64,000 bases of DNA from Simiduia agarivorans SA1 = DSM 21679. GTDB lineage: Bacteria > Pseudomonadota > Gammaproteobacteria > Pseudomonadales > Cellvibrionaceae. Made by a program: the position numbers and the translations under genes. The DNA is taken from the NCBI RefSeq assembly GCF_000305785.2, contig NC_018868.3:1912501-1976500 (forward strand). The letters run 5' to 3'. How positions within the stretch are numbered: the first letter of the stretch is position 1; every line of letters starts with the position of its first letter. Shown piece by piece: positions 30,593 to 63,488 of the stretch. Under the pieces are notes generated by a model that was not told the DNA's origin, made no database searches, and saw only the letters and a list, made by a program, of their open reading frames with translations.

Positions 30593-32668
30593 ATGGAGTT
30601 TTCGCAGGTCTCGCTTACCGCCTATATCGGCGCCGCCATCATGGCCTGGGTGCTCGCCGCGGTATACCTGTTGGACTGGCGCCACCATCGCGCTGAACGG
30701 GCGTTGGGCGTCGCCGCGCTGGTTCACGGCCTGAACCTGGCTCTCACCGGCCTGACCTTCAGCACGCTGGCGGCTCCGCCTCAGGCCATGTTAGTAGTGG
30801 AAGCATTGCACTACGCCTGCTGGGCGCTCGCGCTGCGGACGTTGCTACAACACACCGGCAGGGCCAAATTACCCCGCGCGCAAACCCTGCTGTTCGCTCT
30901 GCCCTGGCCGATTGCCGGCGTGCTGTTGCTGGCTGCCATCACCCAAATGAATTTTCTGTTTTTCCTCGGTACCTGGATATCCCTGGCCTTGTCGGTCATC
31001 GCCCTGGTGTGTGTCGAGCAAACCTATCGCTTCGCCACCGAAAACAACCGCGGCAACAAGGTCATTGTCATCAGCCTGGGCGCACTGTTTCTGTACGACA
31101 CCTACCTCTACAGCTACGCCACCATCTTCCAGCAATTTGACCCCATGCTCTGGCAATCCCGCGCAGCCGTTTCCATCGGTGTATGCCTTTTCATGGCGCT
31201 GGGCAAGCAATTGCTGGGCAAACAGTCCAACATCAGCTCAGACCTGTCGCTATCACGCCCCATGGCGTTTTACTCCACCTCGCTGATTGCGGTGGGATCG
31301 CTGTTCATGGTGCTGGCGCTCGGTGGCTACTATGTGCGCATCTACTCGGGCAACTGGGGCTCGGTGGTTTATTCGTTGCTGGTAATCGGCGCGGTGCTGC
31401 TGGTGTTCTCCATGCTGGTATCGCGCTCCTTGCGAGAGCAGATGTCGGCCATCATCAACAAACACCTGTTCCGGCACAAATACGATTACCGCTCTGAATG
31501 GCTGCGATTAATCAATTTTTTGTCCATGCCCACCGATGGTAGCGAAGCCGCACAACGGGCTTTTTTGGCCGCCACGTCCATCACCAAAGCCTCCGGCGGT
31601 GCCCTGTGGCTGAAAAAGAGCGACCATTTTGACCCGGTGTTCCAGCTTGCCCTGCCCACGGGCAGCCATCCACCCAAGGTCGATACTGCCAGTGAGTTCT
31701 GCCGTATCATGCAGTCGCACGAATGGGTATTCCTGATCCATGCAAAACCCGGCCAATCACAGGCCAAGTACAACGAATTGCTGCCCCCTTGGGTGATCAA
31801 CAATAAACAGCACTGGCTGCTGCTACCATTGATGGCCGGTCACGAACTGGTGGGGTTCCTGCTCTTGTGTGAGCCACACAACGCCAACCCCATCACGTGG
31901 GAAGACCTGGATTTATTCAAAACCACCGGCAGGCAGCTGGGCAGCTACCTGAAATTGCATCAGCAATCCGAACAGCTGGCAGAGAACCGACAGTTTGACA
32001 CCTTCAACAAACTGGTCGCATTCATTGTGCACGACATCAACAATGTTATCGCCCAACAATCGTTGGTGGTGAAAAACGCAGAAAAACACAAACACAAACC
32101 CGAATTTGTGGACGATGCCATGCACACCATCGACAACTCCGTTGAACGCATGCGGCAATTGCTCAAGAAACTGTCGCCGGGCGCCAACGAACTGGTGCAG
32201 AAAGTCAAAATTCACGATGCGGTCCGGCTCGCCATCGACGAGAGCAAACAGTCGCGCTCAAAAATCAATAAGCAGTTAGACCTGGGCAGCCATTGGTTGA
32301 TGGCAGATCAGGTTCGACTGGTGATGACCATCAGTCATTTCATCAAAAACGCCGTGGATGCCACCGCAGAGCAGGGCGAGGTCCGTGTTACAATGACGCT
32401 GGAGCCTGCCCGCGCCACGATTCTCATAGAAGATACCGGCCACGGCATGGATAGCAATTTTATCCAGCACCGTTTGTTCAAACCCTTCGACACCACTAAA
32501 TCGGGCAAGGGCATGGGCATCGGGGCCTATTTGTCGCGCGAGTACATCAAAGAGCTCGGCGGCACACTAGAAGTCAGCAGTAAAATCGGTGAAGGCACCC
32601 AGGTGGTATTTACCCTACCGGTGCAATCCACGGAATCAGAAAAGATCAGGGAAGCCAGCAGACTATGA
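30593..32668 (+). CDS. prsK: XrtA/PEP-CTERM system histidine kinase PrsK
   Basis: Membrane sensor kinase of the exosortase-associated two-component system. The N-terminal half (about residues 1-285) has some eight hydrophobic segments. A GAF-like domain follows (about 300-460), then the kinase core with His480 in AFIVHDINNVIAQQ, N-box HFIKNAVDAT, DTGHGMD, FKPFDTTK and GKGMGIGAYLSREY. It has 691 residues, typical of PrsK. It overlaps prsR by 4 bp (ATGA). In Zoogloea, PrsK/PrsR with sigma-54 control expression of PEP-CTERM proteins (established for that group); the signal is unknown. Confidence 0.93.
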   Translation: MEFSQVSLTAYIGAAIMAWVLAAVYLLDWRHHRAERALGVAALVHGLNLALTGLTFSTLAAPPQAMLVVEALHYACWALALRTLLQHTGRAKLPRAQTLLFALPWPIAGVLLLAAITQMNFLFFLGTWISLALSVIALVCVEQTYRFATENNRGNKVIVISLGALFLYDTYLYSYATIFQQFDPMLWQSRAAVSIGVCLFMALGKQLLGKQSNISSDLSLSRPMAFYSTSLIAVGSLFMVLALGGYYVRIYSGNWGSVVYSLLVIGAVLLVFSMLVSRSLREQMSAIINKHLFRHKYDYRSEWLRLINFLSMPTDGSEAAQRAFLAATSITKASGGALWLKKSDHFDPVFQLALPTGSHPPKVDTASEFCRIMQSHEWVFLIHAKPGQSQAKYNELLPPWVINNKQHWLLLPLMAGHELVGFLLLCEPHNANPITWEDLDLFKTTGRQLGSYLKLHQQSEQLAENRQFDTFNKLVAFIVHDINNVIAQQSLVVKNAEKHKHKPEFVDDAMHTIDNSVERMRQLLKKLSPGANELVQKVKIHDAVRLAIDESKQSRSKINKQLDLGSHWLMADQVRLVMTISHFIKNAVDATAEQGEVRVTMTLEPARATILIEDTGHGMDSNFIQHRLFKPFDTTKSGKGMGIGAYLSREYIKELGGTLEVSSKIGEGTQVVFTLPVQSTESEKIREASRL

Positions 32669-34026
32669 GCAACGACAAACCCACCCTGCTTGTCATCGAA
32701 GACGACAAAGGGCTGCAAAGTCAGCTGCGCTGGCATTTTGAGGATTACAACACCGTATTTGCCGAGAATCGCCAGGATGCCTGCGCTGCCTTGCGCATGC
32801 ACGAGGCACCGGTTGTCATTCAGGACCTGGGCCTGCCACCCGACGCCGACGGTGTCGATGAAGGCATGAAATGTGTGCGCGATTTACTCAGGCTTTCACC
32901 CAACACTAAAATCATTGTCATGACCGGAAAGACCGGGCACGAGCATGCGGTGCAGGCCATTGGTCTCGGCGCCTATGATTACTACCAAAAGCCGGTGGAC
33001 CCAAACGCTCTGGACCTGGTGGTTAAACGAGCCTTCCATATTCATTCTCTCGAAGAAGAAAACAAGCGCCTTCAGCAACGGAATCAACAACCGCTGGAAG
33101 GCCTGATTACCAATGACGAGCAGATGCTGAAAATCTGCCGTACGCTCGAGAAAATCGCCCCCACCAACGTGACCTGCACCATCCTGGGCGAAAGCGGCAC
33201 CGGCAAAGAAGTGGTGGCGCGGGCGATTCACGAACTGAGCCCCAACGCCACCAAGCGCTTTGTCGCCATCAATTGCGCGGCCGTGCCGGAAAACCTGATA
33301 GAAAGTGAACTGTTCGGTTACGAAAAAGGCGCCTTCACCGGTGCAGCCAAACAAACCATCGGCAAGGTAGAGCTTGCCAACGAGGGCACCCTGTTTCTGG
33401 ATGAAATTGGCGACATGCCACTTAACCTGCAAGCCAAGCTGCTGCGCTTTTTGCAGGAGCGGGTCATTGAACGCGTGGGCGGACGCACCGAGATTCCCGT
33501 GGACGTACGGGTGATCTGCGCCACCAATAAAAATCTTGAACAAATGGTTGCGGACGGCAGCTTCCGCGAAGACCTGTATTATCGCATCAGTGAAATTACC
33601 GTCGACATTCCGCCGCTGCGGGAACGCAACGGTGACAAAGTGCTGCTGGCGCGCCATTTCAAGCGCAAATTTGCCAAAGAACACGGCCAGCAAATCACCG
33701 ACTTCACCGCCGACGCCCTGGCGGCGATCGAGTCCCATCGCTGGCCCGGGAATGTGCGTGAAATGGAAAACAAAATTAAGCGCGCCGTGATTATGGCCGA
33801 CAATAAAATGATCAACTGTGATGATCTCGGCCTGTGCGGTGATCACAATGCGCTCAGCCTGAATTTACGTCAGGTGCGCAGCGAAGCAGAAAAATCTGCC
33901 ATCGTGCGCGCGCTGTGCATCACAGAAGACAATATCTCAGCCGCCGCGAAACTGCTGGGCATTACCCGGCCCACATTTTACGACCTAATAAAAAAGCATG
34001 ACATAAATATTGGTAATGCCAGCTGA
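32665..34026 (+). CDS. prsR: XrtA/PEP-CTERM system sigma-54 response regulator PrsR
   Basis: NtrC-type activator, 453 residues. The receiver domain has Asp54 in VIQDLGLPPDADG, a hallmark of PrsR. The AAA+ domain has Walker A GESGTGKE, intact GAFTGA (YEKGAFTGAAKQ) and GTLFLDEIGDMPLNLQAKLL. The C-terminal Fis-like helix-turn-helix is NISAAAKLLGITRPTFYDLI. It is followed by two genes carrying a shared upstream element (34064 and 34650), and the second has a near-perfect -24/-12 promoter, so these are its likely local targets. Confidence 0.94.
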   Translation: MSNDKPTLLVIEDDKGLQSQLRWHFEDYNTVFAENRQDACAALRMHEAPVVIQDLGLPPDADGVDEGMKCVRDLLRLSPNTKIIVMTGKTGHEHAVQAIGLGAYDYYQKPVDPNALDLVVKRAFHIHSLEEENKRLQQRNQQPLEGLITNDEQMLKICRTLEKIAPTNVTCTILGESGTGKEVVARAIHELSPNATKRFVAINCAAVPENLIESELFGYEKGAFTGAAKQTIGKVELANEGTLFLDEIGDMPLNLQAKLLRFLQERVIERVGGRTEIPVDVRVICATNKNLEQMVADGSFREDLYYRISEITVDIPPLRERNGDKVLLARHFKRKFAKEHGQQITDFTADALAAIESHRWPGNVREMENKIKRAVIMADNKMINCDDLGLCGDHNALSLNLRQVRSEAEKSAIVRALCITEDNISAAAKLLGITRPTFYDLIKKHDINIGNAS

Positions 34027-34063
34027 GAGTGTGTCTGCCGCCCTGTCGGACATTAGCCACAAA

Positions 34064-34080
34064 GTCGGAAAAATTTACAC
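34064..34080 (+). promoter_or_regulatory. Candidate PrsR-binding element 1
   Basis: GTCGGAAAAATTTACAC, 109 bp before the lipoprotein start. It matches GTCGG-N8-ACA of the element at 34650. A second GTCGGA lies 19 bp upstream (34045-34050), about two helical turns away, as expected for tandem activator sites. Binding by PrsR is inferred. Confidence 0.5.
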
Positions 34081-34188
34081 CCGCACCAATGGCGTCACAC
34101 TTTGATGATTGTGGCGCCTAAATCCCTTGCACACGCGCACCAATCCTTCAGAATCCATTTGCATTAATGAGGTAAAGGTTATTTCGAA

Positions 34189-34641
34189 GTGCAATATAGT
34201 GTGAAGCACGTCTCAATTCTGGCGCTCGCTCTGTGCATCACGGCATGCGGCGGAGGTCAATCACAAACCTTTGCCCAGGAAGGCGCCAACAAACCCACGC
34301 CAACGCCCACCCCGGCGCCAACCCCAACACCCGAGCCGACACCCACGCCCACCCCCGCACCGCCAGAACCCGGCGTACACTACGTTAACGGGCAAGTACT
34401 GATCATGTGGGCGCCGCCCAGTCATCGGGAGAATGGTGACCAACTAACGCCATCAGAGATCGGCGGTTACGAAGTCAGGTTCCGGGAGTATGAGGCCCCC
34501 ACTTATACGTACCTTTTGCAAAAGCCCAATGCCGGCGACGCCATCCTCATTAACTACCTTGAAGGCTACTACGAGTTTGAGGTGGCAGCCTTCGATACCA
34601 ACGGCCTGTACAGCCGCTTTGTGCCGGTGACTCCCCAGTAG
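34189..34641 (+). CDS. Lipoprotein with Pro/Thr-rich linker and fibronectin type III-like domain
   Basis: Predicted outer-membrane or surface lipoprotein, 150 residues. The signal peptide ends in lipobox CITAC with lipidated Cys20. A linker of alternating Pro and Thr covers about residues 36-61. A single FN3-like domain follows, with QVLIMWAPPSHRENG, PSEIGGYEVRFREY and YYEFEVAAFDTNGLYS, the usual core of fibronectin-type surface domains. The start is GTG 34189, with GAGGTAAAGG upstream; a second GTG at 34201 is possible but poorly spaced. It carries the same upstream element as the PEP-CTERM gene, which suggests co-regulation by PrsR. Specific role unknown. Confidence 0.8.
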   Translation: MQYSVKHVSILALALCITACGGGQSQTFAQEGANKPTPTPTPAPTPTPEPTPTPTPAPPEPGVHYVNGQVLIMWAPPSHRENGDQLTPSEIGGYEVRFREYEAPTYTYLLQKPNAGDAILINYLEGYYEFEVAAFDTNGLYSRFVPVTPQ

Positions 34642-34649
34642 AACAATAC

Positions 34650-34665
34650 GTCGGTTTTTTTTACA
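34650..34665 (+). promoter_or_regulatory. Candidate PrsR-binding element 2
   Basis: GTCGGTTTTTTTTACA, same GTCGG-N8-ACA layout as the element at 34064. It lies about 63 bp before the -24 box at 34728 and roughly 97 bp before the expected transcription start, a normal enhancer distance for a sigma-54 activator. Inferred to bind PrsR. Confidence 0.55.
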
Positions 34666-34727
34666 TCAACCCAATCCATCTTCCTTTGAATGCTGGTAAC
34701 TGCTTGATATTACAAAGCATTTATCGA

Positions 34728-34743
34728 TGGCATGCATCCTGCT
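34728..34743 (+). promoter_or_regulatory. Sigma-54 (-24/-12) promoter of the PEP-CTERM gene
   Basis: TGGCATG-CATC-CTGCT fits the TGGCAYR-N4-TTGCW consensus with one mismatch. The invariant GG (34729-34730) and GC (34741-34742) have the correct 10-bp spacing. Transcription would begin near 34754, about 90 nt before the start codon. Together with adjacent prsR this is strong evidence for PrsR/sigma-54 control. Confidence 0.8.
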
Positions 34744-34844
34744 AACTAGTCTCTGCCCCAAGAAAACGGGCCTCGCCAAAGGCCTTAATCGGGCAGCAGA
34801 CTAACGGAGAAGCTCGCGCCCCGTGCCGTGCAAGGATGAAGAAG

Positions 34845-35594
34845 ATGAACGCTATTACACGTAAAATTTTGTCACTGTGTTTGGTTTTGGCCCCGGCCTG
34901 CGCCAGTGCCGGTGTGGTCGTAAACTACAATCCAGACGCCACAGCGGGTGAAGCTGCATTCCTGGCGTTCCTGAATGGCCCTACCGTGGTAGAAAACTTT
35001 GACAGCCTGGGTGGTGCAACGGTGGATGACAACACATTTCAAGGCAGCTGGGAGAGCCACGCGGCCAGCTACAGCACTAACGCAGGCACATTCACACTGG
35101 TTACGGCCGGTCAGGGCGGCAGCAACAAACACAATAACCACCTGATGATAGAAAGCGCAGAAACCGGCGAATACGGTCGCGAAGTTTTATCTGATTATCA
35201 GGGAGATTTGTGGCTCGACAGCAATGACGCCAGAAAGGTGTCCTGGACCTTCGACAACCCACAAACCTTCGGCATGAATGCATTTGGCTTTTTCCTGGCC
35301 GACGCTGCCGATATCAGTGCAAAACTGACGCTTATCTTTGATGACGGTAACTACTCCGATACTTACACTATCAATCCGTACACCCAAAGCGGCAGTATGG
35401 GCTATGTATCGGTAATCAGCAGCATGGCCATTGCAGGCGCAACGTTGACCTTCGATAACAGCACAGGCAACGATGGCTGGGGGATAGACGACATCACCAT
35501 TGGCACCGTCAGCGAGCCGGGCTCTGTGCTGCTGCTTACACTAGGCCTGCTGAGCCTTGGCGTGGCGCGGCGTCGCATTAAAGCAGAGAAATAA
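34845..35594 (+). CDS. PEP-CTERM sorting domain-containing exported protein
   Basis: Substrate of exosortase A. It has a signal peptide (MNAITRKILSLCLVLAPACA, cleavage likely after ASA) and a beta-rich body (VVENFDSLGGATVDDNTFQG, MNAFGFFLADAADISAKLTL, GWGIDDITIG). The C-terminal tripartite signal is EPGS at residues 224-227, a hydrophobic stretch, then ARRR at 241-244. ATG 34845 is preferred over 34836, because AAGG at 34832-34835 abuts the first ATG but is 9 nt from the second. It has 249 residues. It is the only PEP-CTERM protein recognised in this window and has its own sigma-54 promoter. It is probably cell-surface or matrix associated; the body's binding role is unknown. Confidence 0.9.
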   Translation: MNAITRKILSLCLVLAPACASAGVVVNYNPDATAGEAAFLAFLNGPTVVENFDSLGGATVDDNTFQGSWESHAASYSTNAGTFTLVTAGQGGSNKHNNHLMIESAETGEYGREVLSDYQGDLWLDSNDARKVSWTFDNPQTFGMNAFGFFLADAADISAKLTLIFDDGNYSDTYTINPYTQSGSMGYVSVISSMAIAGATLTFDNSTGNDGWGIDDITIGTVSEPGSVLLLTLGLLSLGVARRRIKAEK

Positions 35595-48529: not shown

Positions 48530-49544
48530 ATCGCTGCTTTCGCAATACGGTTTTCGCCTCTTCTATCCAGGTAGAGTACTGAATAAAATCGTCGTATTCA
48601 GCGGGCAAAGCATAGCGAGGCAGCGTATACATATTCGTATTTGAATCTATTAGCATAGAACCTGGAACAGCAGTCACCGCAGCTTGCATACCCGACCGGG
48701 CGACCAATGAAGCCTCCCTGGCCGAATAGTCAGTAGACTTGCCCACGGGATAACAAAATACCGACAGTGGAGAATCACACATTTCCTGTAGATCCAGCCA
48801 AGAACCCGCAATTTCATCCTGCGCGCGCTGATCATCCAGACTCGTCAGAATCCTATGCGTTCGCGAATGCGGCCCTATAAGCATTCCATCATTTTCAAGC
48901 GTGCGTACGGAGGACAGATCAATAGTTTGATATTTTTCGGTAGGCTTCGTGGGCACTAACACCCCCGCAATTTCAGCGATATCATTCAGCGCCTGGTCTA
49001 CCTGTTCGGGCTGCTGCAGTTTTATCCTGCAAACCAAAGATTCACAAAAAGCCTCTTTCCCAGCGAACGCATCCAGATCAAACCGGGCGGCCAACGCTGA
49101 TAGGGCTTGAGGATTCTCAAAAGCCTCATCAACCAAAAACTGCAGCTTAGCGTCCCAGATCCAACTTCCCTGCTTAATTATTTCCGTCGGCAAAAAATAT
49201 GTGCAGGGCACATCGTATTGTTTGAAAATTGGCAGCCCAATATCCAAGTGATCCTGATAACCGTCGTCTATCGTAAACGCGACGGCCGGACGATTAAGAC
49301 GTTCACCTAACGATATATAGTTCATGGCCTGCTCGAGCGAAATAATATCTACCTTCTTCCGCCTCAAAAACTCCAAAAACCGCTTAACCTGGCTCGTGCT
49401 GTGTCCAGGCAATTCGAGGTCTGGTATCTCGAACCTATGCAACATAAAGACCGGAATGAAAGTGCCACGCGTGACAGCAGGCCACAATCCAAATGGAAGG
49501 CGCCCCATCGTTTTTACAAGTGCTGACTTTATATTTCCACGCAT
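48507..49544 (-). CDS. Polysaccharide deacetylase (NodB domain), second copy
   Basis: 345 residues. Motif 1 VAFTIDDGYQDH, motif 2 IGPHSRTHRILTS, then VFCYPVGKSTDYS. The metal-site Asp and His residues are kept. It is diverged from the neighbouring deacetylase rather than a recent duplicate. Its start overlaps the exosortase stop (shared base 49544), so it belongs to the xrtA operon. Predicted to act on hexosamine units of the EPS. Confidence 0.87.
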   Translation of the reverse strand: MRGNIKSALVKTMGRLPFGLWPAVTRGTFIPVFMLHRFEIPDLELPGHSTSQVKRFLEFLRRKKVDIISLEQAMNYISLGERLNRPAVAFTIDDGYQDHLDIGLPIFKQYDVPCTYFLPTEIIKQGSWIWDAKLQFLVDEAFENPQALSALAARFDLDAFAGKEAFCESLVCRIKLQQPEQVDQALNDIAEIAGVLVPTKPTEKYQTIDLSSVRTLENDGMLIGPHSRTHRILTSLDDQRAQDEIAGSWLDLQEMCDSPLSVFCYPVGKSTDYSAREASLVARSGMQAAVTAVPGSMLIDSNTNMYTLPRYALPAEYDDFIQYSTWIEEAKTVLRKQRFKAGQKA

Positions 49545-51037
49545 TATTGACTCGCCTCAGAAACAACCACATCCATAGAAGCTGCTACTGCCGAAAAATC
49601 GAGCTGCCGAAACTGATTCCACTCTTCATCCGTACATCGACGAGACTTGCAGAGATAACTTAGGGTATGAAGAGCTGATACTGATTCACCGGTCAATCCG
49701 TTTAACGCCTCGTAAAGCTTTAATTTAAGCGAGTGCGTAGTCGCATATCCACCAACTCGATACTGCCAAGCCACTAAACGGCCCCGCAATGCGCCATATA
49801 ACTGCTTGACATTGAATCCATCAATATTGGTAGTGCGCACAGCAACCTCTTCACGGAGCGCGATGTCATTAAGATAATAAGCAAGTTCCTTTCCCTGTTC
49901 TTGCTTAAAATAGAGCAACAGATCAGTCCGAACCGGAATACCAGACAAACTCCCCTCCCAAGCAGAATATTCGTCATAACCTAAAAAACGAACAGACGGC
50001 TCCGGCGCATGCAATGGTCTAAAGCCTGGCATCGTAAATCGACCTGACGCAGCAGGGACATCTGGAGAGTTTAATACTCGCGATATAATAAGTGTGGAAA
50101 CAGCAAGACTAGCGCTTAGAAGGACCGCAGCAATGACCCGTGTTTTAATGGCCTGGGAATCGGGTTCCGGCGCCGCTTCCGACGTTTCTGCTCCACTCGC
50201 GGCCCGCCTCATCAGCACAAACATGAATAACCCGAAGAAAGCGAGATAGACAACCCAACCATAGAATTCATGGTCATAAACCAGCGCGCTTTCCATTTTG
50301 GAATAATGAGCAATCAGTACCAACGAATATATTCGGACCCAGTTGGCAACCACGCCAACAACACAAGCCGCCAAAACAATCATTACGCGCTGAGTGAAAA
50401 GAGGGAAGTACAAGGCCGCCATAATAATAGAAAGCGCCAGACTGGTTAACAAATAGACCAAGCCACTACATCCGTGCGCAACCTCAAGAACACCATACGC
50501 CAATTCAATTTTAAAACCATCGATGTAAGCTGGAATCTGCAGTATCTCGAGCCCGAACTCTGTAACAGCCACAGCCACAACCCTGAGAGGTACGCTCAAA
50601 ACTTCCCAAAAGGGGATGGCAGTATACAAAAGCCCTATGGGGATTATCGTTGCCCTAGCAGCGGCCCCGCCAAACACACCGTACACCCATGCAAACAACA
50701 GAGCAGGCATTAACAGCAACATTACAATGCGGACCTGCACATAGTCTGCAAGAACAAATAAACCCCCCATAGCAACACAGGTCATCATTGCTAGAAACGT
50801 TTCATACTTTGCAGCAGCAGCTGCAAAAGCTCCGTCCTGTTGATGCCGCTCATACAAAAGGTACAACGTACAAGCCAGCACCATATAACCATGTGCATAG
50901 GTTTCTGAAAACTTGCCCCAGTAACCTGCCAGCGCACGCCATGCTTCAATAACAGGCAAGAAAAAGACCAGTAATAGCAGCACTAAAACAACATTGGTAA
51001 AATTGCGGTTTCTCGACAATCCAGCAACTACTGACAT
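49544..51037 (-). CDS. xrtA: Exosortase A fused to EpsI domain
   Basis: Membrane transpeptidase-like enzyme that processes the PEP-CTERM signal. The N-terminal 8-TM exosortase domain (about residues 1-290) has catalytic Cys190 (VAHGCSGLVYLL), Arg235 (NWVRIYS) and His256 (YDHEFYGW). The C-terminal domain (about 310-490) is EpsI-like: MPGFRPLHAPEPSVRFLGY and YYLNDIALREEVAVRTTN. EpsI is a separate gene in many systems and fused in others. GAGG precedes ATG 51037. Its predicted local substrate is the PEP-CTERM protein at 34845. It overlaps the upstream glycosyltransferase by 10 bp. Confidence 0.95.
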   Translation of the reverse strand: MSVVAGLSRNRNFTNVVLVLLLLVFFLPVIEAWRALAGYWGKFSETYAHGYMVLACTLYLLYERHQQDGAFAAAAAKYETFLAMMTCVAMGGLFVLADYVQVRIVMLLLMPALLFAWVYGVFGGAAARATIIPIGLLYTAIPFWEVLSVPLRVVAVAVTEFGLEILQIPAYIDGFKIELAYGVLEVAHGCSGLVYLLTSLALSIIMAALYFPLFTQRVMIVLAACVVGVVANWVRIYSLVLIAHYSKMESALVYDHEFYGWVVYLAFFGLFMFVLMRRAASGAETSEAAPEPDSQAIKTRVIAAVLLSASLAVSTLIISRVLNSPDVPAASGRFTMPGFRPLHAPEPSVRFLGYDEYSAWEGSLSGIPVRTDLLLYFKQEQGKELAYYLNDIALREEVAVRTTNIDGFNVKQLYGALRGRLVAWQYRVGGYATTHSLKLKLYEALNGLTGESVSALHTLSYLCKSRRCTDEEWNQFRQLDFSAVAASMDVVVSEASQ

Positions 51038-52203: not shown

Positions 52204-53352
52204 ATGTTAACCGCGGCATTCTGGATCAGCTTGCTGGGAGTGGTTTACAGCTATTTCCTCTACCCTTTCATACTGCTCTTGCTTACCAAAGCCAAGAATG
52301 CAAAGCCTTCGGCTGAGAACATAACCAACGAGTTGCCGTTTGTCTCATTGGTCATTACCGCGTACAACGAAGAGCGGAATATCGCAGACAAGCTTGATGA
52401 CACCTTAAAGGTTACCTACCCCGGGCAACTCGAAATAATCGTCGCATCAGATGGCTCAACCGACAAAACCGACGAAATCGTCAACGCCTATGCGGATAGG
52501 GGTGTAAAGCTGGTCCGGCCGGAACAGAGACTCGGCAAGGAAAACGCCCAAAAACACGCTATTGCTCATTGTGCTGGCAGTATAGTGGTTTTTTCGGATG
52601 TTAGTACAAAAATACCGGAAGACGCCCTGGTTCACGTTGTAAAGTATTTCGACGATCCGCGTATCGGCGCGATTTCATCCGAAGACCGCTTCATCGCCAA
52701 TGACAACAACGAGACACCGGGCGAAGGCCTGTATGTTCGCTATGAAATGTGGCTACGCAGCCTGGAATCCAAACTCGCAGGGCTGGTTGGCCTGAGCGGT
52801 TCTTTTTTTGCTGCCCGCATCAATATTTGCCAGGAGTGGGACATCCGATCGCCGAGTGACTTCAATACGGCACTGCAGTGTGCCCGCCAGGGGTACAAGG
52901 CCGTTACCGCACCCGATGTATTGGGATACTACAAAGACTTGGCCGACCCTAAAAAGGAATACCAACGTAAGTTACGCACTGTCATCAGAGGCATGACCGC
53001 CGTATCGCGCAATCCTGCCTGCCTCAACCCTCTGGCATTTGGCTTGTTCGCATTTCAGCTGTTCAGTCACAAAATCATGCGCTGGCTGGTGCCCTGCTTT
53101 ATGGTTGCCTGCTTATTCCTTAATGCCATCCTGGTTATGTCCGGCGGCGCCTGGATTTACCAGGCCCTGTTAGCCTGTCAGCTTGGCTTCTACAGCCTGG
53201 CGCTGCTTGGTCACGCCCTACCAGCGCTGCAGTCCGTGAGTGTGATCCGCTTGATGGTATTTTTTGTTCGCGTTAATTTCGCGCTGTTAGACGCAGGCAT
53301 ACAATTCGTTTCCGGCAAGCGAATGACGGTGTGGGAGCCATCCAAGCGGTGA
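52204..53352 (+). CDS. Membrane-associated glycosyltransferase family 2
   Basis: 382 residues. A short N-terminal TM helix, then the GT-A core: VSLVITAYNEERNIADKLDD, IIVASDGSTDKTDEI (DGS), VVFSDVSTKIPEDAL and a diverged GLSGSFFAARINI, followed by QCARQGYKAV and YYKDLADPKKEYQRKLRTVI, a QxxRW-like region. Several C-terminal TM helices complete it. This architecture is typical of polymer-building or chain-extending transferases. Its stop overlaps the start of the next gene (TGATG). Confidence 0.87.
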   Translation: MLTAAFWISLLGVVYSYFLYPFILLLLTKAKNAKPSAENITNELPFVSLVITAYNEERNIADKLDDTLKVTYPGQLEIIVASDGSTDKTDEIVNAYADRGVKLVRPEQRLGKENAQKHAIAHCAGSIVVFSDVSTKIPEDALVHVVKYFDDPRIGAISSEDRFIANDNNETPGEGLYVRYEMWLRSLESKLAGLVGLSGSFFAARINICQEWDIRSPSDFNTALQCARQGYKAVTAPDVLGYYKDLADPKKEYQRKLRTVIRGMTAVSRNPACLNPLAFGLFAFQLFSHKIMRWLVPCFMVACLFLNAILVMSGGAWIYQALLACQLGFYSLALLGHALPALQSVSVIRLMVFFVRVNFALLDAGIQFVSGKRMTVWEPSKR

Positions 53353-55761: not shown

Positions 55762-56791
55762 TATTCTTATTGCGCTTGAGACAATCATTTAATTGGTAGG
55801 CAAGTTTTAACCCGATTGAGCGAACCACATAGTAGTCCCCCATGGAAAGGGTATTGTTGGCAATCGACGCTTTATAGTTTGCCGACTTGCCGTCACCTGC
55901 CATAAAGTCATAATAGTGACAACGAGATAAGCTAAACGATTGCTCGATCTGCATGCCAAAATGAACCATGCCCAGAGATACCCGCCCAAAATCCAGCGCT
56001 GAAAATCCTGATTGCAGATTGTAGACCCACCCATCAAGTTCTACGTCGAGCATGACGGATACACATTTATCATCGAGCATCAGAGCAGACAGATCGACGC
56101 ACCCGCCTTCTTGCTGCAAGTGAGTCAGAAACAATCTTATAAACTGCTCCGACTCTCCAACAATACACGGCTTTCCCCAACGCACCTCATGAAATTGATT
56201 CAAGATCTTCAGGAAATGGTCAATATCCGGCCAAAGATTACGCCGGTGAAGCTCGCCTCTTTTCTGAAGTCGACGACGCCCACCCAGCACCCTATCTCTT
56301 GTGGACTTTCCGAGACCTGCGCAATAATCATCAAACGTTGCATTGGCTGTATTGATGCCATATGCCGGCATATCCTCCCGCCGCATTAACAGATATCCAC
56401 GCGTAAGGCAGTACTGTTTGAGTAAATCCACTTCGAAGTCTTTGTCGAGAAGGCCACGCAAATAAAGCTGATCCCATTGCCCCGACTCTGCTTCCTGTAA
56501 AAACAGGGAGAAGTCCGCCGGCGAATTGAAACATAAATATTCGCTAGCAAACCCTTCGAGACAAGGTGTAGAGATGGCTTTCGGCGCCGCGCTTTGGAAT
56601 CTAAGCAACTTGGCAAGGTTGATGGGATATTGAATCAGGTTGGACGAGTGGCCGGAATAAATCGGCCGTTCCGGCACGTCGCAGGGCCAGACCTGATCCC
56701 ATGCCCTGAGCCATGACGCCGAACGGAACAAACCGGGCCGTACTGCGCAGGCACCTGGAGTGCCTGCGTGCATTAACTTACTATCGTTCAA
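55742..56791 (-). CDS. GNAT/FemAB-like acyl- or aminoacyltransferase (Acetyltransf_6 type)
   Basis: 349 residues. The C-terminal GNAT-like half has GKSTRDRVLGGRRRLQKRGE, NQFHEVRWGKPCIVG, LDVELDGWVYNLQSGFSAL and YYDFMAGDGKSANYKA, features of the BcsL/CelD group. It follows prsT with a 4-bp overlap, so it is at the end of the secretion operon. It probably modifies a polysaccharide or lipid-linked precursor in the cytoplasm; the exact donor is unknown. Confidence 0.8.
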   Translation of the reverse strand: MNDSKLMHAGTPGACAVRPGLFRSASWLRAWDQVWPCDVPERPIYSGHSSNLIQYPINLAKLLRFQSAAPKAISTPCLEGFASEYLCFNSPADFSLFLQEAESGQWDQLYLRGLLDKDFEVDLLKQYCLTRGYLLMRREDMPAYGINTANATFDDYCAGLGKSTRDRVLGGRRRLQKRGELHRRNLWPDIDHFLKILNQFHEVRWGKPCIVGESEQFIRLFLTHLQQEGGCVDLSALMLDDKCVSVMLDVELDGWVYNLQSGFSALDFGRVSLGMVHFGMQIEQSFSLSRCHYYDFMAGDGKSANYKASIANNTLSMGDYYVVRSIGLKLAYQLNDCLKRNKNITRYPE

Positions 56792-59427
56792 AGGCGGCTT
56801 CTTGCACGTTCCAGATGGGTCGCGATTTCAGCATTGTCCGGCGCAAGTCGACTTGCCTGCTCGAGTAACTTTACCCCCTCCTGCACTTCACCCGCCTCGA
56901 CCATAAACCAGCCCAACGTGTCGATAATCGCTGGCGAAGAAGGGGCTAAATCGTACGCACGACGAGCAAGCTTCAGGGCTTCTTCAATTGAATCTTTTTG
57001 AACGATCCATGCCAGATTGTTCAGCACCACAGGTTGGGCCTTGTTGATTTCCAACGCTTTCAAATAGTAAGCCTTTGCGCCACTTTCGTCTTTTTCCGCC
57101 TGTGCATTCATGGCTTTGTATACCAGGGGCTGGGCGGAATCGGGCAAACCGCTATGCCATTCATCCAGAAATAACGCAGCCTTGGTGAGCTCGTTTGCCT
57201 GACGTAACATAACAAACAATGCCTGCCCGGCAAGATCGGAAGGGGCGTGATCCCAGCTAGTACGGTATGCCATCAATGCATCAGGTAACTTTTTCTGGTG
57301 TTCAAAAATTTTACCCTGCAGGTATGCGCGCGTAGCCTGATCGCCTTGCCCCGCATTAAACTGGTCGAGCATTGATTGTGCACTGGCTGCATTTCCTGCA
57401 TCCAACTCCAGCTTGACCAAATTTGCCAGATAGCCCATGTGGCGTGGCATTTCAGCCGCAGCATTCAGGAAGTGTTTTTTCGCTAAATTAAGATCGCCAT
57501 TGGCGTATGCTTGAAAAGCTTTCTGCTGATAAGCCTCCGCTGCCAATGCATGCGCACGCTCAAACCCAGGACGCTTTTCCAACACGATTTCTGACAACTG
57601 TAAAACCTTGTCATAATCTTTCTGCCGCAGCGCCAGATTGGCCAAAGTGTATTCAGGTTGCCAATACTCATCGGGTATCTTAAGCGAAGCCAACCGTGCC
57701 TCAGCAGTGTCGATGATATTCCGGCGATACAGGCTAACCACCCAGCGCTCGTAAGCAAAAAGTGCTGCCGGCATTGCAACCATCGCATTTTCCCAGTCTT
57801 GAGTAACCTTTACCGGCTCACCCATCTTTTCGTGCACTTCTGCCAATGCGGCATAAGTAATTGACGCAACTTTCTTGTCGTCCATACTCAAAGCGCGTTC
57901 GAACGCAGCTTCCGCCTTCTTCAACTCACCCTGGCTGTTTAAATACCACCCGGAAAAGAAATAACCCTGCGGCAACTCCGGGTGGGATTTCATAAACTCA
58001 TTAATCAGCTGCTCAAGCAGATCGACTTCTCCAACGGCCGCCAATAGGCGATAGTAAGCCTGCTGCACAAGCAGATCGGTTTTAGCTAAATCGTAGGCCT
58101 TACTGAGCTGGGCGCGAGCCTGCTGCTCTTTTCCTGATTGGTTATAGGCGGCTGCCAAAGCAATTCGCAGCCTCGCCTGCTCCGGTTTAAGTGCGAGGCT
58201 TCGCTCCAGTGCACGCACCACGTCCTTCGGGTCAGACTTTAATTCGGCAAGCGCCAAGCCATAGGTTGCCCAAATTGCGGCATTTTCCGGCTGCAGCTCA
58301 CACGCCCGCTGAAGCATAGATAGCGCTGCATCGGGTTGCTGGGTGCTTAGCTTTGCAATGGTCGCCGCCTGGATAACTTCCGGCGTAACCGTTTCCGCAT
58401 CAACATACTGACCAAACAATTCATCTGCACGATCAAAATTTCCTAACTTCTGCGATACAACACCCAGCAAGGTACCCGCATTCTGATCTTCAGGAAATTG
58501 ATCATGCAGTTCCTGTAATATTTTACTGGCGCCCTCAAGATCACCACTGGAAAAACGTTCCAGTGCTTCTGCAAACCGCTGTTGCGCTGAAATCCCTTCC
58601 GGATTGGCTTCGCTCAGTATTTTTTGATAGGTATAAGCTTCTGTGGCACGTCCCAACTGGGTGAGAGTTTCGATGAGTCGCCCCAAAACGGTGGCACGCT
58701 CTGCTGTCAGCACATCTGCGCTCTTCAGGGTGGCAAGCGCTTCGGTGTAATAGCGTTCCGCGGCTTCACGCTCATTAAAATAAAGGGCAATATCGCCTCT
58801 TAACGTAAGCGCCGGAAAATAATCAGGGTGCGACTCAATAACGCCATCGAGAAGCTCCTTCGCTGCAAGCGGATTATTGCCTGCCAGCTGATAAGCTGCC
58901 TCCAAATAACCTCGAAGTGACAGGGTTTCTTTCCCACTGACCTTGCCTAACTCTTTGATATGCTGCTCAAGGCCGGCGTAGTCATTGAGATAGAGCAGAG
59001 CCTCTCCCTTAACCTTAAAATAGCGCAACCCCTTTTCAGTATCAGGGCTCAGGACGATTGTATTCAACACTTCTATTGCTGATCGATATTTCTTGCTGGC
59101 CACATAGGCTTCAGCTAATGCAATGGCTAAAAAATCGCTTTGCGCAACGACCTCTTCCGGTATCCGCTGCGTTTGCCGGAATGCTCCAACTTGGTTATAC
59201 ACATTCGCCAGCAACTCATAGGCGGGCACCAGTCGCTCACCCTGCTGAATGACATTTCTGGCTTCCAGCATGGCAGCGCGATACTGCCCCTGCCGGTAGT
59301 AGGATTGAGCCGACTTCAGATGGCGCTCCGCCTTATCTTGCTGACTTTCCTTATCGCTCGCACACCCTACCGCGCCAAAAAAAAGCACTGCAATACATAG
59401 TGCTGCGAATGTGAGCCGATTAATCAT
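56788..59427 (-). CDS. prsT: PEP-CTERM system TPR-repeat lipoprotein PrsT
   Basis: 879 residues. Lipoprotein signal with GAVGC lipobox (Cys about residue 22), then tandem tetratricopeptide repeats across nearly the full length. Examples are AERHLKSAQSYYRQGQYRAA, SHPDYFPALTLRGDIALYF and the closing IIDTLGWFMVEAGEVQEGV. The size and repeats match the PrsT family that accompanies XrtA EPS loci. It probably acts as a periplasmic outer-membrane scaffold for polymer export. Codes on the minus strand between the GNAT protein and the barrel gene. Confidence 0.92.
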   Translation of the reverse strand: MINRLTFAALCIAVLFFGAVGCASDKESQQDKAERHLKSAQSYYRQGQYRAAMLEARNVIQQGERLVPAYELLANVYNQVGAFRQTQRIPEEVVAQSDFLAIALAEAYVASKKYRSAIEVLNTIVLSPDTEKGLRYFKVKGEALLYLNDYAGLEQHIKELGKVSGKETLSLRGYLEAAYQLAGNNPLAAKELLDGVIESHPDYFPALTLRGDIALYFNEREAAERYYTEALATLKSADVLTAERATVLGRLIETLTQLGRATEAYTYQKILSEANPEGISAQQRFAEALERFSSGDLEGASKILQELHDQFPEDQNAGTLLGVVSQKLGNFDRADELFGQYVDAETVTPEVIQAATIAKLSTQQPDAALSMLQRACELQPENAAIWATYGLALAELKSDPKDVVRALERSLALKPEQARLRIALAAAYNQSGKEQQARAQLSKAYDLAKTDLLVQQAYYRLLAAVGEVDLLEQLINEFMKSHPELPQGYFFSGWYLNSQGELKKAEAAFERALSMDDKKVASITYAALAEVHEKMGEPVKVTQDWENAMVAMPAALFAYERWVVSLYRRNIIDTAEARLASLKIPDEYWQPEYTLANLALRQKDYDKVLQLSEIVLEKRPGFERAHALAAEAYQQKAFQAYANGDLNLAKKHFLNAAAEMPRHMGYLANLVKLELDAGNAASAQSMLDQFNAGQGDQATRAYLQGKIFEHQKKLPDALMAYRTSWDHAPSDLAGQALFVMLRQANELTKAALFLDEWHSGLPDSAQPLVYKAMNAQAEKDESGAKAYYLKALEINKAQPVVLNNLAWIVQKDSIEEALKLARRAYDLAPSSPAIIDTLGWFMVEAGEVQEGVKLLEQASRLAPDNAEIATHLERARSRL

Positions 59428-61979: not shown

Positions 61980-63488
61980 TTACATGCGCATGTCGTACCA
62001 GTAGAGTGCCAACCCGATGTAGGCAACCATGGCAAAGGTGACTAAAAAGAGTACAACCAAAACGTCTTTTCTAATCAATCGTTGAGCCAGCGGTGAGTCG
62101 TAATGTGGGACCACCCCCACCAGCGGAATTTCTGGCGGCATTTGCTGTTGCAGAATCCTGGTTGAACGATAGTGAGGGTCAATCAACACAACCAGAATCA
62201 AAATACCGAAAGGCGCCAAAAAGCCAAGTAACGGAGCCGCTGCCGCAAAATGAGCGTAATGAATGCCTGACGGCCGGAGAGGGAAAGTAGCGGGATCCTG
62301 AATGCGATAGGTAACCCCCTGCCCCTCCTGATCCAGCGTCATGGATAAGCGGGCAGACTCTTTACGCTGGAGCATTTCCTCATAGACATCGCGTGTTACA
62401 TTGTAATCCCGCGTTAACTCCGAAAGCTGAGCCTGATTCGCCGCCACCCGTTGGGCGCGCTCATGCTCCTGCTGCATGAGTTTTTCCAATGACTCCTTGC
62501 GTCGCAGTTGCGCTCTTAATTCAACCTCGGCAAGCGAAACCTGCTTGCGCAGCTCTTCATACAATGGATTCTCCACTGTTTGCGAAACCACATCGCCTTC
62601 GGTTTTTGCCTGCGCAATCAATGTATCGATTTCATTGATTTGTGCCCTCAGGGACACCACATCCGGATAGCTTTCCTGGTAACTCAGGAGCAACTGTTCA
62701 ACATTAGCAGACAATCGAGCCCTGCGAGCCCTCAAGTCGTCCAACTGACCTTTGGCCTGGAGATACTGACCCTCGCTATCCAATTGCTGCTTTATCGTTC
62801 TGATACGGGACTGGCTCTCTTCGATGGCGATATTGAGCGTTTCAACATCAATTCTGAGCTGGGCAATACGCGCACTCACAGACGCCTCGGTACCATCCAA
62901 ATTATTGGACTTGAACTCTTTAAGACGTTCTTCAGCCAATTCCAGCTGCCGCTTGTATGACTGCACCTGGGCATCTATAAAATTGAATGCCCCCATGCTT
63001 TCTTCACGTTTTTTACGCTCCGTGTAGTTAATAAACAGCGTTGTTACAGCATACAAGGTCTCGAACGAATCATCCTGACTACTCGAGGTGTATGTAATGG
63101 AGAAGTAGTTTGCTTTTTCGGATTTAACCCATAAGCCATCCCGAATTCGACGCACCACCCGATCAACCTGCTCCGGCGTCATAGTCGGCGATATCTTGCC
63201 GGTTTCCCGACCTGCCGCTTCGAGAATAGAACGCCCATAAATAATTTCGCGCGCCTGCGCGGAATGATCAACCTCTGTTACCGACGCCCTACCCTTTAAC
63301 AAAGGCTCAATGATGTTGGTCACATCGGAATACAGCGAGACACTGGTGGTGTATTTGTGAGGCCATAAATAGCCCACACCTAAAATTGCAAAACTAAGCA
63401 GCACGAACATTGCAGCAGCCACAAACCGCCACCGTATAAGTTCCAGCTTCAGTGCTCGCAATAACTCTGCAATTAATACTTTATCCAT
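61980..63488 (-). CDS. XrtA-associated polysaccharide chain-length determinant (Wzz/PCP family)
   Basis: 502 residues. An N-terminal TM helix (about 24-43) is followed by the periplasmic PCP domain (KYTTSVSLYSDVTNIIEPLL) and a long helical coiled-coil region (about 170-390). A conserved Pro-rich segment (ATFPLRPSGIHYAHFAAAAP) precedes a second TM, and a last hydrophobic segment lies near the C-terminus. It sets chain length and couples export, together with the kinase-like protein next to it. Upstream neighbour is the export protein. Good match to the exosortase-associated length-determinant family. Confidence 0.92.
   Translation of the reverse strand: MDKVLIAELLRALKLELIRWRFVAAAMFVLLSFAILGVGYLWPHKYTTSVSLYSDVTNIIEPLLKGRASVTEVDHSAQAREIIYGRSILEAAGRETGKISPTMTPEQVDRVVRRIRDGLWVKSEKANYFSITYTSSSQDDSFETLYAVTTLFINYTERKKREESMGAFNFIDAQVQSYKRQLELAEERLKEFKSNNLDGTEASVSARIAQLRIDVETLNIAIEESQSRIRTIKQQLDSEGQYLQAKGQLDDLRARRARLSANVEQLLLSYQESYPDVVSLRAQINEIDTLIAQAKTEGDVVSQTVENPLYEELRKQVSLAEVELRAQLRRKESLEKLMQQEHERAQRVAANQAQLSELTRDYNVTRDVYEEMLQRKESARLSMTLDQEGQGVTYRIQDPATFPLRPSGIHYAHFAAAAPLLGFLAPFGILILVVLIDPHYRSTRILQQQMPPEIPLVGVVPHYDSPLAQRLIRKDVLVVLFLVTFAMVAYIGLALYWYDMRM

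What the first reader, a model, noticed from the sequence alone, without database searches (positions are those of the whole stretch)
34650..34743. Near-consensus sigma-54 promoter plus candidate enhancer in front of the PEP-CTERM gene, next to prsKR
TGGCATG-CATC-CTGCT (34728-34743) has the invariant GG/GC at the right spacing. GTCGGTTTTTTTTACA (34650-34665) lies at a standard activator distance. With prsR less than 1 kb away this makes a self-contained circuit: PrsK/PrsR to sigma-54 to an exosortase substrate. Sigma-54 control of PEP-CTERM genes by PrsK/PrsR is known in Zoogloea; the DNA element here is my own reading.
Basis: partly seen in the sequence, partly recalled or inferred. Interest (0 to 1): 0.72.

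Follow-up and report, generated by a model that had tools for sequence, protein, structure and literature searches.

The report
PrsR-controlled sigma-54 promoter of PEP-CTERM gene

Summary
TGGCATGCATCCTGCT (34728-34743) and GTCGGTTTTTTTTACA (34650-34665) lie before the PEP-CTERM gene next to prsKR, 62 nt apart. The upstream element is not new: Haft et al. 2006 describe it as 'motif 1', the predicted PrsR site, followed by a spacer of 62.8 (SD 10.6) nt and a sigma-54 'motif 2'. Homologous promoters keep both motifs, not the spacer. New here: of 182 PEP-CTERM loci from 48 other genomes, 109 have a strong pair, and the gap is quantised near 41, 52, 63, 74, 85, 96 and 107 nt; 101 of 109 lie within 2 nt of 63+11k. 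The pooled period is 11.0 bp (bootstrap 10.8-11.25). The same kind of clustering is published for Vibrio qrr sigma-54 enhancers, so the principle is known; its occurrence in PrsR promoters is the addition. Caveats: PrsR binding is inferred, and rpoN of this assembly carries a frameshift.

The parts
34650..34665 (+). PrsR-type activator site (Haft motif 1), GTCGGTTTTTTTTACA
   Evidence: 23.4 bits with its own row left out; conserved in homologous promoters
34728..34743 (+). sigma-54 -24/-12 promoter (Haft motif 2), TGGCATGCATCCTGCT
   Evidence: 17.3 bits with its own row left out; conserved in homologous promoters
34666..34727 (+). 62-nt spacer; sequence little conserved, length 62-64 nt in 13 of 15 homologue hits
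34836..35594 (+). PEP-CTERM (SEP variant) protein gene, likely start at 34845
   Evidence: TIGR02595 17.3 bits vs 16; alignment of starts
30593..32668 (+). prsK, histidine kinase
   Evidence: TIGR02916 548.8 bits vs 300
32665..34026 (+). prsR, response regulator of the NtrC class (GAFTGA, recalled as the sigma-54 contact loop, is in the translation)
   Evidence: TIGR02915 703.9 bits vs 502.6
34064..34079 (+). second copy of the activator element, GTCGGAAAAATTTACA, without a GGN10GC partner 25-125 nt downstream
34189..34641 (+). small lipoprotein-like gene (named by reading) between prsR and the PEP-CTERM gene
   Evidence: homologue beside the PEP-CTERM homologue in 8 of 14 loci L106-L119
49544..51037 (-). 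exosortase gene of the same locus
   Evidence: TIGR02602 145.2 bits vs 105.55; XrtA model TIGR03109 188.4, under its 208 cut-off
56788..59427 (-). prsT-like TPR protein gene
   Evidence: best match TIGR02917, 263.9 bits, under its 312.2 cut-off

Best explanation
This is a PrsR-dependent sigma-54 promoter of the kind predicted by Haft et al. 2006. PrsK phosphorylates PrsR; PrsR binds GTCGG-N8-ACA at 34650-34665; the DNA between bends so that its AAA+ ring touches the sigma-54 polymerase closed at 34728-34743 and opens it with ATP; transcription starts near 34754 and makes a surface protein for the exosortase. Activator site and promoter must lie on a fixed face of the helix, so evolution changes their distance mostly in whole turns of about 11 bp; the window's 62 nt belongs to the commonest class. 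Shown here: the sites, their conservation, their association with PEP-CTERM genes and the quantised spacing. Inferred: PrsR as the binder, phosphorylation, loop geometry, activity in this strain.
For: Sites and spacing match motif 1, spacer and motif 2 of PMC1569441 section 7. 6 of 9 PEP-CTERM genes of this genome have motif 1 (at most 1 mismatch) plus a sigma-54 site at 50-64 nt. 5 exact elements within 400 bp upstream of these 9 genes, 0.053 expected; without the window's own gene and site, 4 against 0.047. 13 of 15 homologue hits in the family (the window's included) have the pair with a gap of 62-64. In five aligned promoters the invariant runs upstream of the ribosome-binding and start region are GTCG, TTACA, TGGC and TGCT. 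109 of 182 PEP-CTERM loci elsewhere have a pair of 24 bits or more; best mirrored control 14.8. Gap period 11.1, R 0.755, 0 of 20000 smoothed-bootstrap sets as high; on 32 promoters of 9 new genomes with period and phase fixed beforehand, mean cosine 0.70; one per genome, 36 genomes, R 0.76, 0 of 20000. An unrelated distance (motif 2 to frame opening, n 77) gives R 0.14.
Against: rpoN is split by a frameshift in this assembly. 3 of 9 own PEP-CTERM genes lack the pair: two have no motif 1 and no well-formed nearby sigma-54 site, one a good sigma-54 site only. 73 of 182 loci elsewhere have no pair of 24 bits or more (a few have cut-off upstream DNA). 8 of 109 gaps deviate by more than 2 nt (60, 66, 66, 71, 77, 81, 82, 101); in the replicate alone the best period is 10.0 and its one-per-genome test is weak (n 9, p about 0.01). 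Promoters of one genome are not independent. In a first, cruder scan of the 61 PrsK loci, 13 pairs were found against 3 in mirrored sequence, and 6 of the 13 did not precede a PEP-CTERM-like gene. No binding or expression data.
Confidence: 0.9

Rival explanations
1. The sites are conserved and were functional in the lineage, but the promoter is silent in this strain because sigma-54 is lost; the gene is off or transcribed from another promoter.
For: rpoN of this genome gives two TIGR02395 hits in different frames, 275.2 and 218.4 bits, each under the 277.35 cut-off; the three congeners searched have one full-length hit each.
Against: Both rpoN halves otherwise read on as expected, as for a recent change or a sequencing error; the six promoters are not decayed.
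Confidence: 0.15
2. The promoter is sigma-54 dependent but another enhancer-binding protein, not PrsR, binds the upstream element.
For: Binding was not tested here; [quoted passage not shown]
Against: Haft matched motif and PrsR by phylogenetic profile; a Zoogloea PEP-CTERM gene is stated to depend on PrsK-PrsR (PMC9012009 passage).
Confidence: 0.06
3. The copy at 34064 is a working second enhancer: either for a promoter of the lipoprotein-like gene or, over 0.6 kb, for the PEP-CTERM promoter.
For: Perfect consensus, in no ORF of 110 aa or more; 23 of 109 promoters elsewhere have a second same-orientation copy within 250 bp, against 2 mirrored and 4 inverted ones.
Against: No GGN10GC partner 25-125 nt downstream; not seen before the lipoprotein-like gene of Simiduia aestuariiviva; it lies 586 bp from the other copy, while copies elsewhere were only sought within 250 bp; a site of equal score (19.6 vs 19.1 bits) falls inside a coding gene of the window at 52638, so chance is not excluded.
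Confidence: 0.25

Closest known systems
PEP-CTERM cis-regulatory site, motif 1 + motif 2 (Haft et al. 2006, PMC1569441; section 7 and passages seen)
   Same: Motif 1 ending in TTTACA, spacer mean 62.8 nt, sigma-54 motif 2, before PEP-CTERM genes in genomes with PrsK, PrsR, PrsT; motif 1 sometimes repeated
   Different: Spacer given as mean, SD and range; in the held text 'phase' and 'spacing' do not occur and 'helical' only in a reference title
pepA promoter of Aquincola tertiaricarbonis RN12 (PMC9850573, passages seen)
   Same: TGGCAC / CTGCTT, start mapped by primer extension, RpoN1 dependent, predicted enhancer upstream
   Different: Experimental; pepA lies beside prsT, not prsR
qrr sigma-54/LuxO enhancers of Vibrio (PMC4740811, passages seen)
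   Same: Loop lengths of 61 natural enhancers cluster about 11 bp apart, from about 80 to 120 bp
   Different: One set of qrr RNA genes in one genus and another activator; here PEP-CTERM genes of 36 genomes, with gaps down to 41 nt
in vivo LacR loops (PMC1762422, passages seen)
   Same: Fitted helical repeat 10.95-11.60 bp in cells, as the 11.0 here
   Different: Engineered repressor loops

Membership tests
sigma-54 (-24/-12) promoter | GG and GC at the fixed register with TGGCAC / TTGCW context (consensus recalled) | tested here: met
   conserved in relatives
sigma-54 (-24/-12) promoter | A functional sigma-54 in the cell | tested here: inconclusive
   rpoN present but frameshifted in this assembly, full-length in 3 of 3 congeners
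Haft PEP-CTERM cis-regulatory site | Motif 1 ending in TTTACA, 32-92 nt before motif 2 | tested here: met
   gap 62 (definition)
Haft PEP-CTERM cis-regulatory site | Non-coding position before a PEP-CTERM gene, 23-221 nt from the start codon | tested here: met
   92 or 101 nt between motif 2 and the start; site in no ORF of 110 aa or more
Haft PEP-CTERM cis-regulatory site | Genome encodes PrsK, PrsR and an exosortase | tested here: met
   all over cut-off
Haft PEP-CTERM cis-regulatory site | Genome encodes PrsT | tested here: inconclusive
   best match of 56788-59427 is TIGR02917, 263.9 bits, under its cut-off of 312.2
Haft PEP-CTERM cis-regulatory site | Bound by PrsR | not testable with these tools
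   needs footprinting
PEP-CTERM protein | C-terminal PEP signal, membrane helix, basic tail | tested here: met
   TIGR02595 17.3 vs 16 bits; but the motif reads SEP and PF07589 is missed (18.5 vs 20.7)

The most novel reading that the evidence does not exclude
The PrsR regulon is a natural ruler: in the sampled Pseudomonadota the enhancer-promoter distance is held to one helical face, changing in steps of 11.0 bp from about 41 to 107 nt, so genome sequence alone reads out the in vivo helical repeat of loops of about 58-124 bp between site centres (own arithmetic), and second PrsR sites tend to the same phase (23 copies, 22 of 20000 null sets as high; one per genome, n 14, p about 0.05).
Probability: 0.75. 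Interest if true: 0.5.

Novelty: new member of a known kind. Interest (0 to 1): 0.42.

Why it matters
The quantised spacing turns a loose description (mean 62.8, SD 10.6) into a mechanistic constraint: PrsR would have to face sigma-54 polymerase from one side over very short DNA. It gives a simple rule for recognising likely PrsR promoters and a clean test (5 versus 11 bp insertions) in floc-forming and biofilm bacteria.

Tried and rejected
GTCGG-N8-ACA alone as mark of the regulon: rejected, 127 sites against 164 for the reversed pattern, and 25 against 36 for GTCRN6TTWACA. Of those 25, four have a good sigma-54 partner at 50-64 nt and all four precede PEP-CTERM genes; one more (L125) has a poor GGN10GC at 58 inside coding sequence. 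The site at 52638 (-) as promoter of the exosortase operon: rejected, inside a coding gene, and its only GGN10GC is poor. TGGCGCC...TTGCA at 34112-34131 as promoter of the lipoprotein-like gene: GG-GC spacing 4 nt too long.

Rows dropped before counts. Four hits under the PEP-CTERM cut-off in the own genome (L040-L043) are not among the 9. From the class listing, capped by the tool, I took the 29 foreign loci fetched plus 96 further listed rows, chosen before seeing their upstream DNA; rows that were truncated at a contig end, very short or very long in frame, duplicate, or at the end of the list were not taken. In the replicate I took 24 loci and 33 stretches; rows of G000, G250 and G282, already used, were dropped, and a few others (truncated or very long frames) were not taken. 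The 16 + 16 training sites are 6 from the own genome and 10 from family relatives, two near-duplicates left out. The named PrsK loci and the own genome are not in the gap statistics. Motif 2 was required to have GG and GC.

Full report
What is there. Both sequences are at the stated places. The -24/-12 element TGGCATGCATCCTGCT (34728-34743) has GG and GC in the sigma-54 register; of three GGN10GC in 34001-34860 it is the only one with a proper flank. GTCGGTTTTTTTTACA (34650-34665) lies 62 nt upstream. They precede a PEP-CTERM gene (34836-35594, likely start 34845; the signal reads SEP and passes TIGR02595 narrowly, 17.3 vs 16 bits, but not Pfam). Upstream are prsK (30593-32668) and prsR (32665-34026), both far over their NCBIfam cut-offs, and a small lipoprotein-like gene (34189-34641; named by reading). 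Further on, the window holds an exopolysaccharide locus with an exosortase (49544-51037; TIGR02602 over cut-off, XrtA model under its own), a prsT-like gene (56788-59427, under cut-off) and an XrtA-type chain-length gene (61980-63488, over cut-off).

It fits a published element. Section 7 of Haft et al. 2006 (PMC1569441; section read in full) describes a 17-nt motif 1 ending in TTTACA, predicted to bind PrsR, then a spacer averaging 62.8 nt (SD 10.6, range 32-92), then a sigma-54 motif 2, upstream of 99 of 167 proteobacterial PEP-CTERM genes, with PrsK, PrsR and PrsT matching by phylogenetic profile. The logos (Figure 5) are not held, so the match to motif 1 rests on the text. PMC9850573 (passages) maps a pepA start at TGGCAC/CTGCTT and shows RpoN1 dependence in Aquincola; PMC9012009 (passages) states that a Zoogloea PEP-CTERM gene depends on RpoN and PrsK-PrsR, citing work I did not see.

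The window lies in a 4.3-Mb single-contig genome with 9 PEP-CTERM hits over the cut-off. Six of the 9 have motif 1 (two of the six with one mismatch) and a sigma-54 site further on: gaps 51, 64, 50, 62, 52, 53; two of the six have a second copy of motif 1, 66 and 76 nt upstream, the latter with one mismatch. One of the 9 has a sigma-54 site only; two have no motif 1 and no well-formed nearby sigma-54 site. Of 127 exact GTCGG-N8-ACA sites, 5 lie within 400 bp upstream of these 9 genes against 0.053 expected (Poisson P 3e-9); leaving out the window's gene and site, 4 against 0.047 (P 2e-7). The pattern as such is not enriched genome-wide (127 vs 164 reversed).

Conservation. A search of 144 genomes of the family found homologues of the PEP-CTERM protein in 14 (15 hits, the window's included); 13 of the 15 hits carry the pair with a gap of 62-64 nt, the two weakest hits do not. 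In the alignment of the window's promoter with four relatives the invariant runs are GTCG, TTACA, TGGC, TGCT and the region of ribosome-binding site and start; the spacer has only scattered invariant columns. In Simiduia aestuariiviva (L044; evidently congener G127, contig length 96494 in both) prsK, prsR and the lipoprotein-like gene are followed by two PEP-CTERM genes, each with its own pair (gap 64), and an exosortase-like gene (the last named by reading). prsR next to the homologue was otherwise found in one more genome (L109); most loci of that call carry only 1.5 kb of flank, so this is a lower bound. A cruder scan of the 61 PrsK loci (972,210 bases) gave 13 pairs against 3 in mirrored sequence; 7 of the 13 precede PEP-CTERM-like genes (two of these with variant C-termini), 6 do not.

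Quantised spacing. I built weight matrices from 16 motif-1 and 16 motif-2 sites of the family and, without any gap preference (10-130 nt allowed, GG and GC required), took the best pair in each of 125 PEP-CTERM loci from 35 other genomes of the class. 77 loci score 24 bits or more; the best mirrored control is 14.8. Their gaps fall in clusters at 41, 50-53, 61-66, 71-77, 85-87, 95-97 and 105-108, with single values at 101 and 117, and none at 54-60, 67-70, 78-84 or 88-94. The best period over 6-20 bp is 11.1 (R 0.755); 0 of 20000 smoothed-bootstrap sets reach it; it holds without the main peak (n 42, R 0.74) and with one promoter per genome (n 27, R 0.83). Only one pair of loci with equal gaps has spacers more than 55% alike.

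Replicate. With matrix, threshold, period and phase fixed, 57 loci from 13 new genomes (phylum sample) gave 32 strong pairs from 9 genomes with mean cosine 0.70 (V-test p about 1e-8, paralogues not independent; one per genome n 9, mean cosine 0.54, p about 0.01). Here gaps of 54 and 60 occur, gaps of 81-83 in two genomes are off the 11-bp series by 2-4 nt, and the best period of this set alone is 10.0. Pooled, 109 promoters in 36 genomes: period 11.0 (bootstrap 10.8-11.25); 101 of 109 lie within 2 nt of 63+11k, where an even spread would give about half; one per genome R 0.76, 0 of 20000; an unrelated distance gives R 0.14. 73 of the 182 loci have no strong pair. Second motif-1 copies (23 of 109 promoters, sought within 250 bp; 2 mirrored, 4 inverted) also tend to this period (22 of 20000; one per genome n 14, p about 0.05).

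Meaning. The simplest mechanism is the classical one for NtrC-class activators (general knowledge): PrsR must reach sigma-54 polymerase from a given face over a short loop, so mostly whole-turn changes survive. 11.0 bp agrees with helical repeats fitted to LacR loops in cells, 10.95-11.60, rather than about 10.5 in solution (PMC1762422, passages). PMC4740811 (passages) reports the same kind of clustering, about 11 bp apart, for 61 Vibrio qrr enhancers, so the principle is known. For PrsR/PEP-CTERM promoters I found no such report: Haft's held text has no 'phase' or 'spacing' and 'helical' only in a reference title; a search for PEP-CTERM with 'helical phasing' gave 0 papers; and the listings for PEP-CTERM with PrsR, PrsK, sigma-54, rpoN or enhancer-binding protein (in full, 58 with 30 of 42 shown) have no title on it. 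The library lacks most subscription papers.

What stays open. PrsR binding, phosphorylation and promoter activity are inferred. rpoN of this genome appears as two pieces in different frames, each under the family cut-off, while 3 of 3 congeners have it full-length; error or true loss cannot be told here. Of the 150 bases scanned around the break only one run of four equal bases was reported, none longer. The second copy of the element at 34064 has no sigma-54 partner and was not seen in the one congener read there; its role is unknown.

Noticed in passing
G000:C1:3870712-3872165 (-), L175/L176: rpoN is split by a frameshift in this assembly; full-length in the three congeners searched. Described only.
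   Followed up: partly
34064-34079: Second perfect activator element between prsR and the lipoprotein-like gene, with an imperfect repeat at about 34045 just before it and no sigma-54 partner.
   Followed up: partly
34189-34641: Small proline/threonine-rich lipoprotein-like gene, with a homologue beside the PEP-CTERM homologue in 8 of 14 loci L106-L119; no known domain over cut-off.
   Followed up: partly
L066, L068, L071: In three gammaproteobacterial records (two Methylomicrobium or Methylotuvimicrobium, one MAG) the same pair (gap 64) precedes a 279-aa protein without a PEP-CTERM-like end: a possible PrsR target of another kind.
   Followed up: no
L280, L326 (G381), L297 (G403): Gaps of 81-83 nt, off the 11-bp series; perhaps lineages with another effective helical repeat.
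   Followed up: no
L036 (G000:C1:4217504): A PEP-CTERM gene with a near-perfect sigma-54 site (TGGCACTCGGATTGCTT) but no recognisable motif 1 upstream: perhaps another activator.
   Followed up: no
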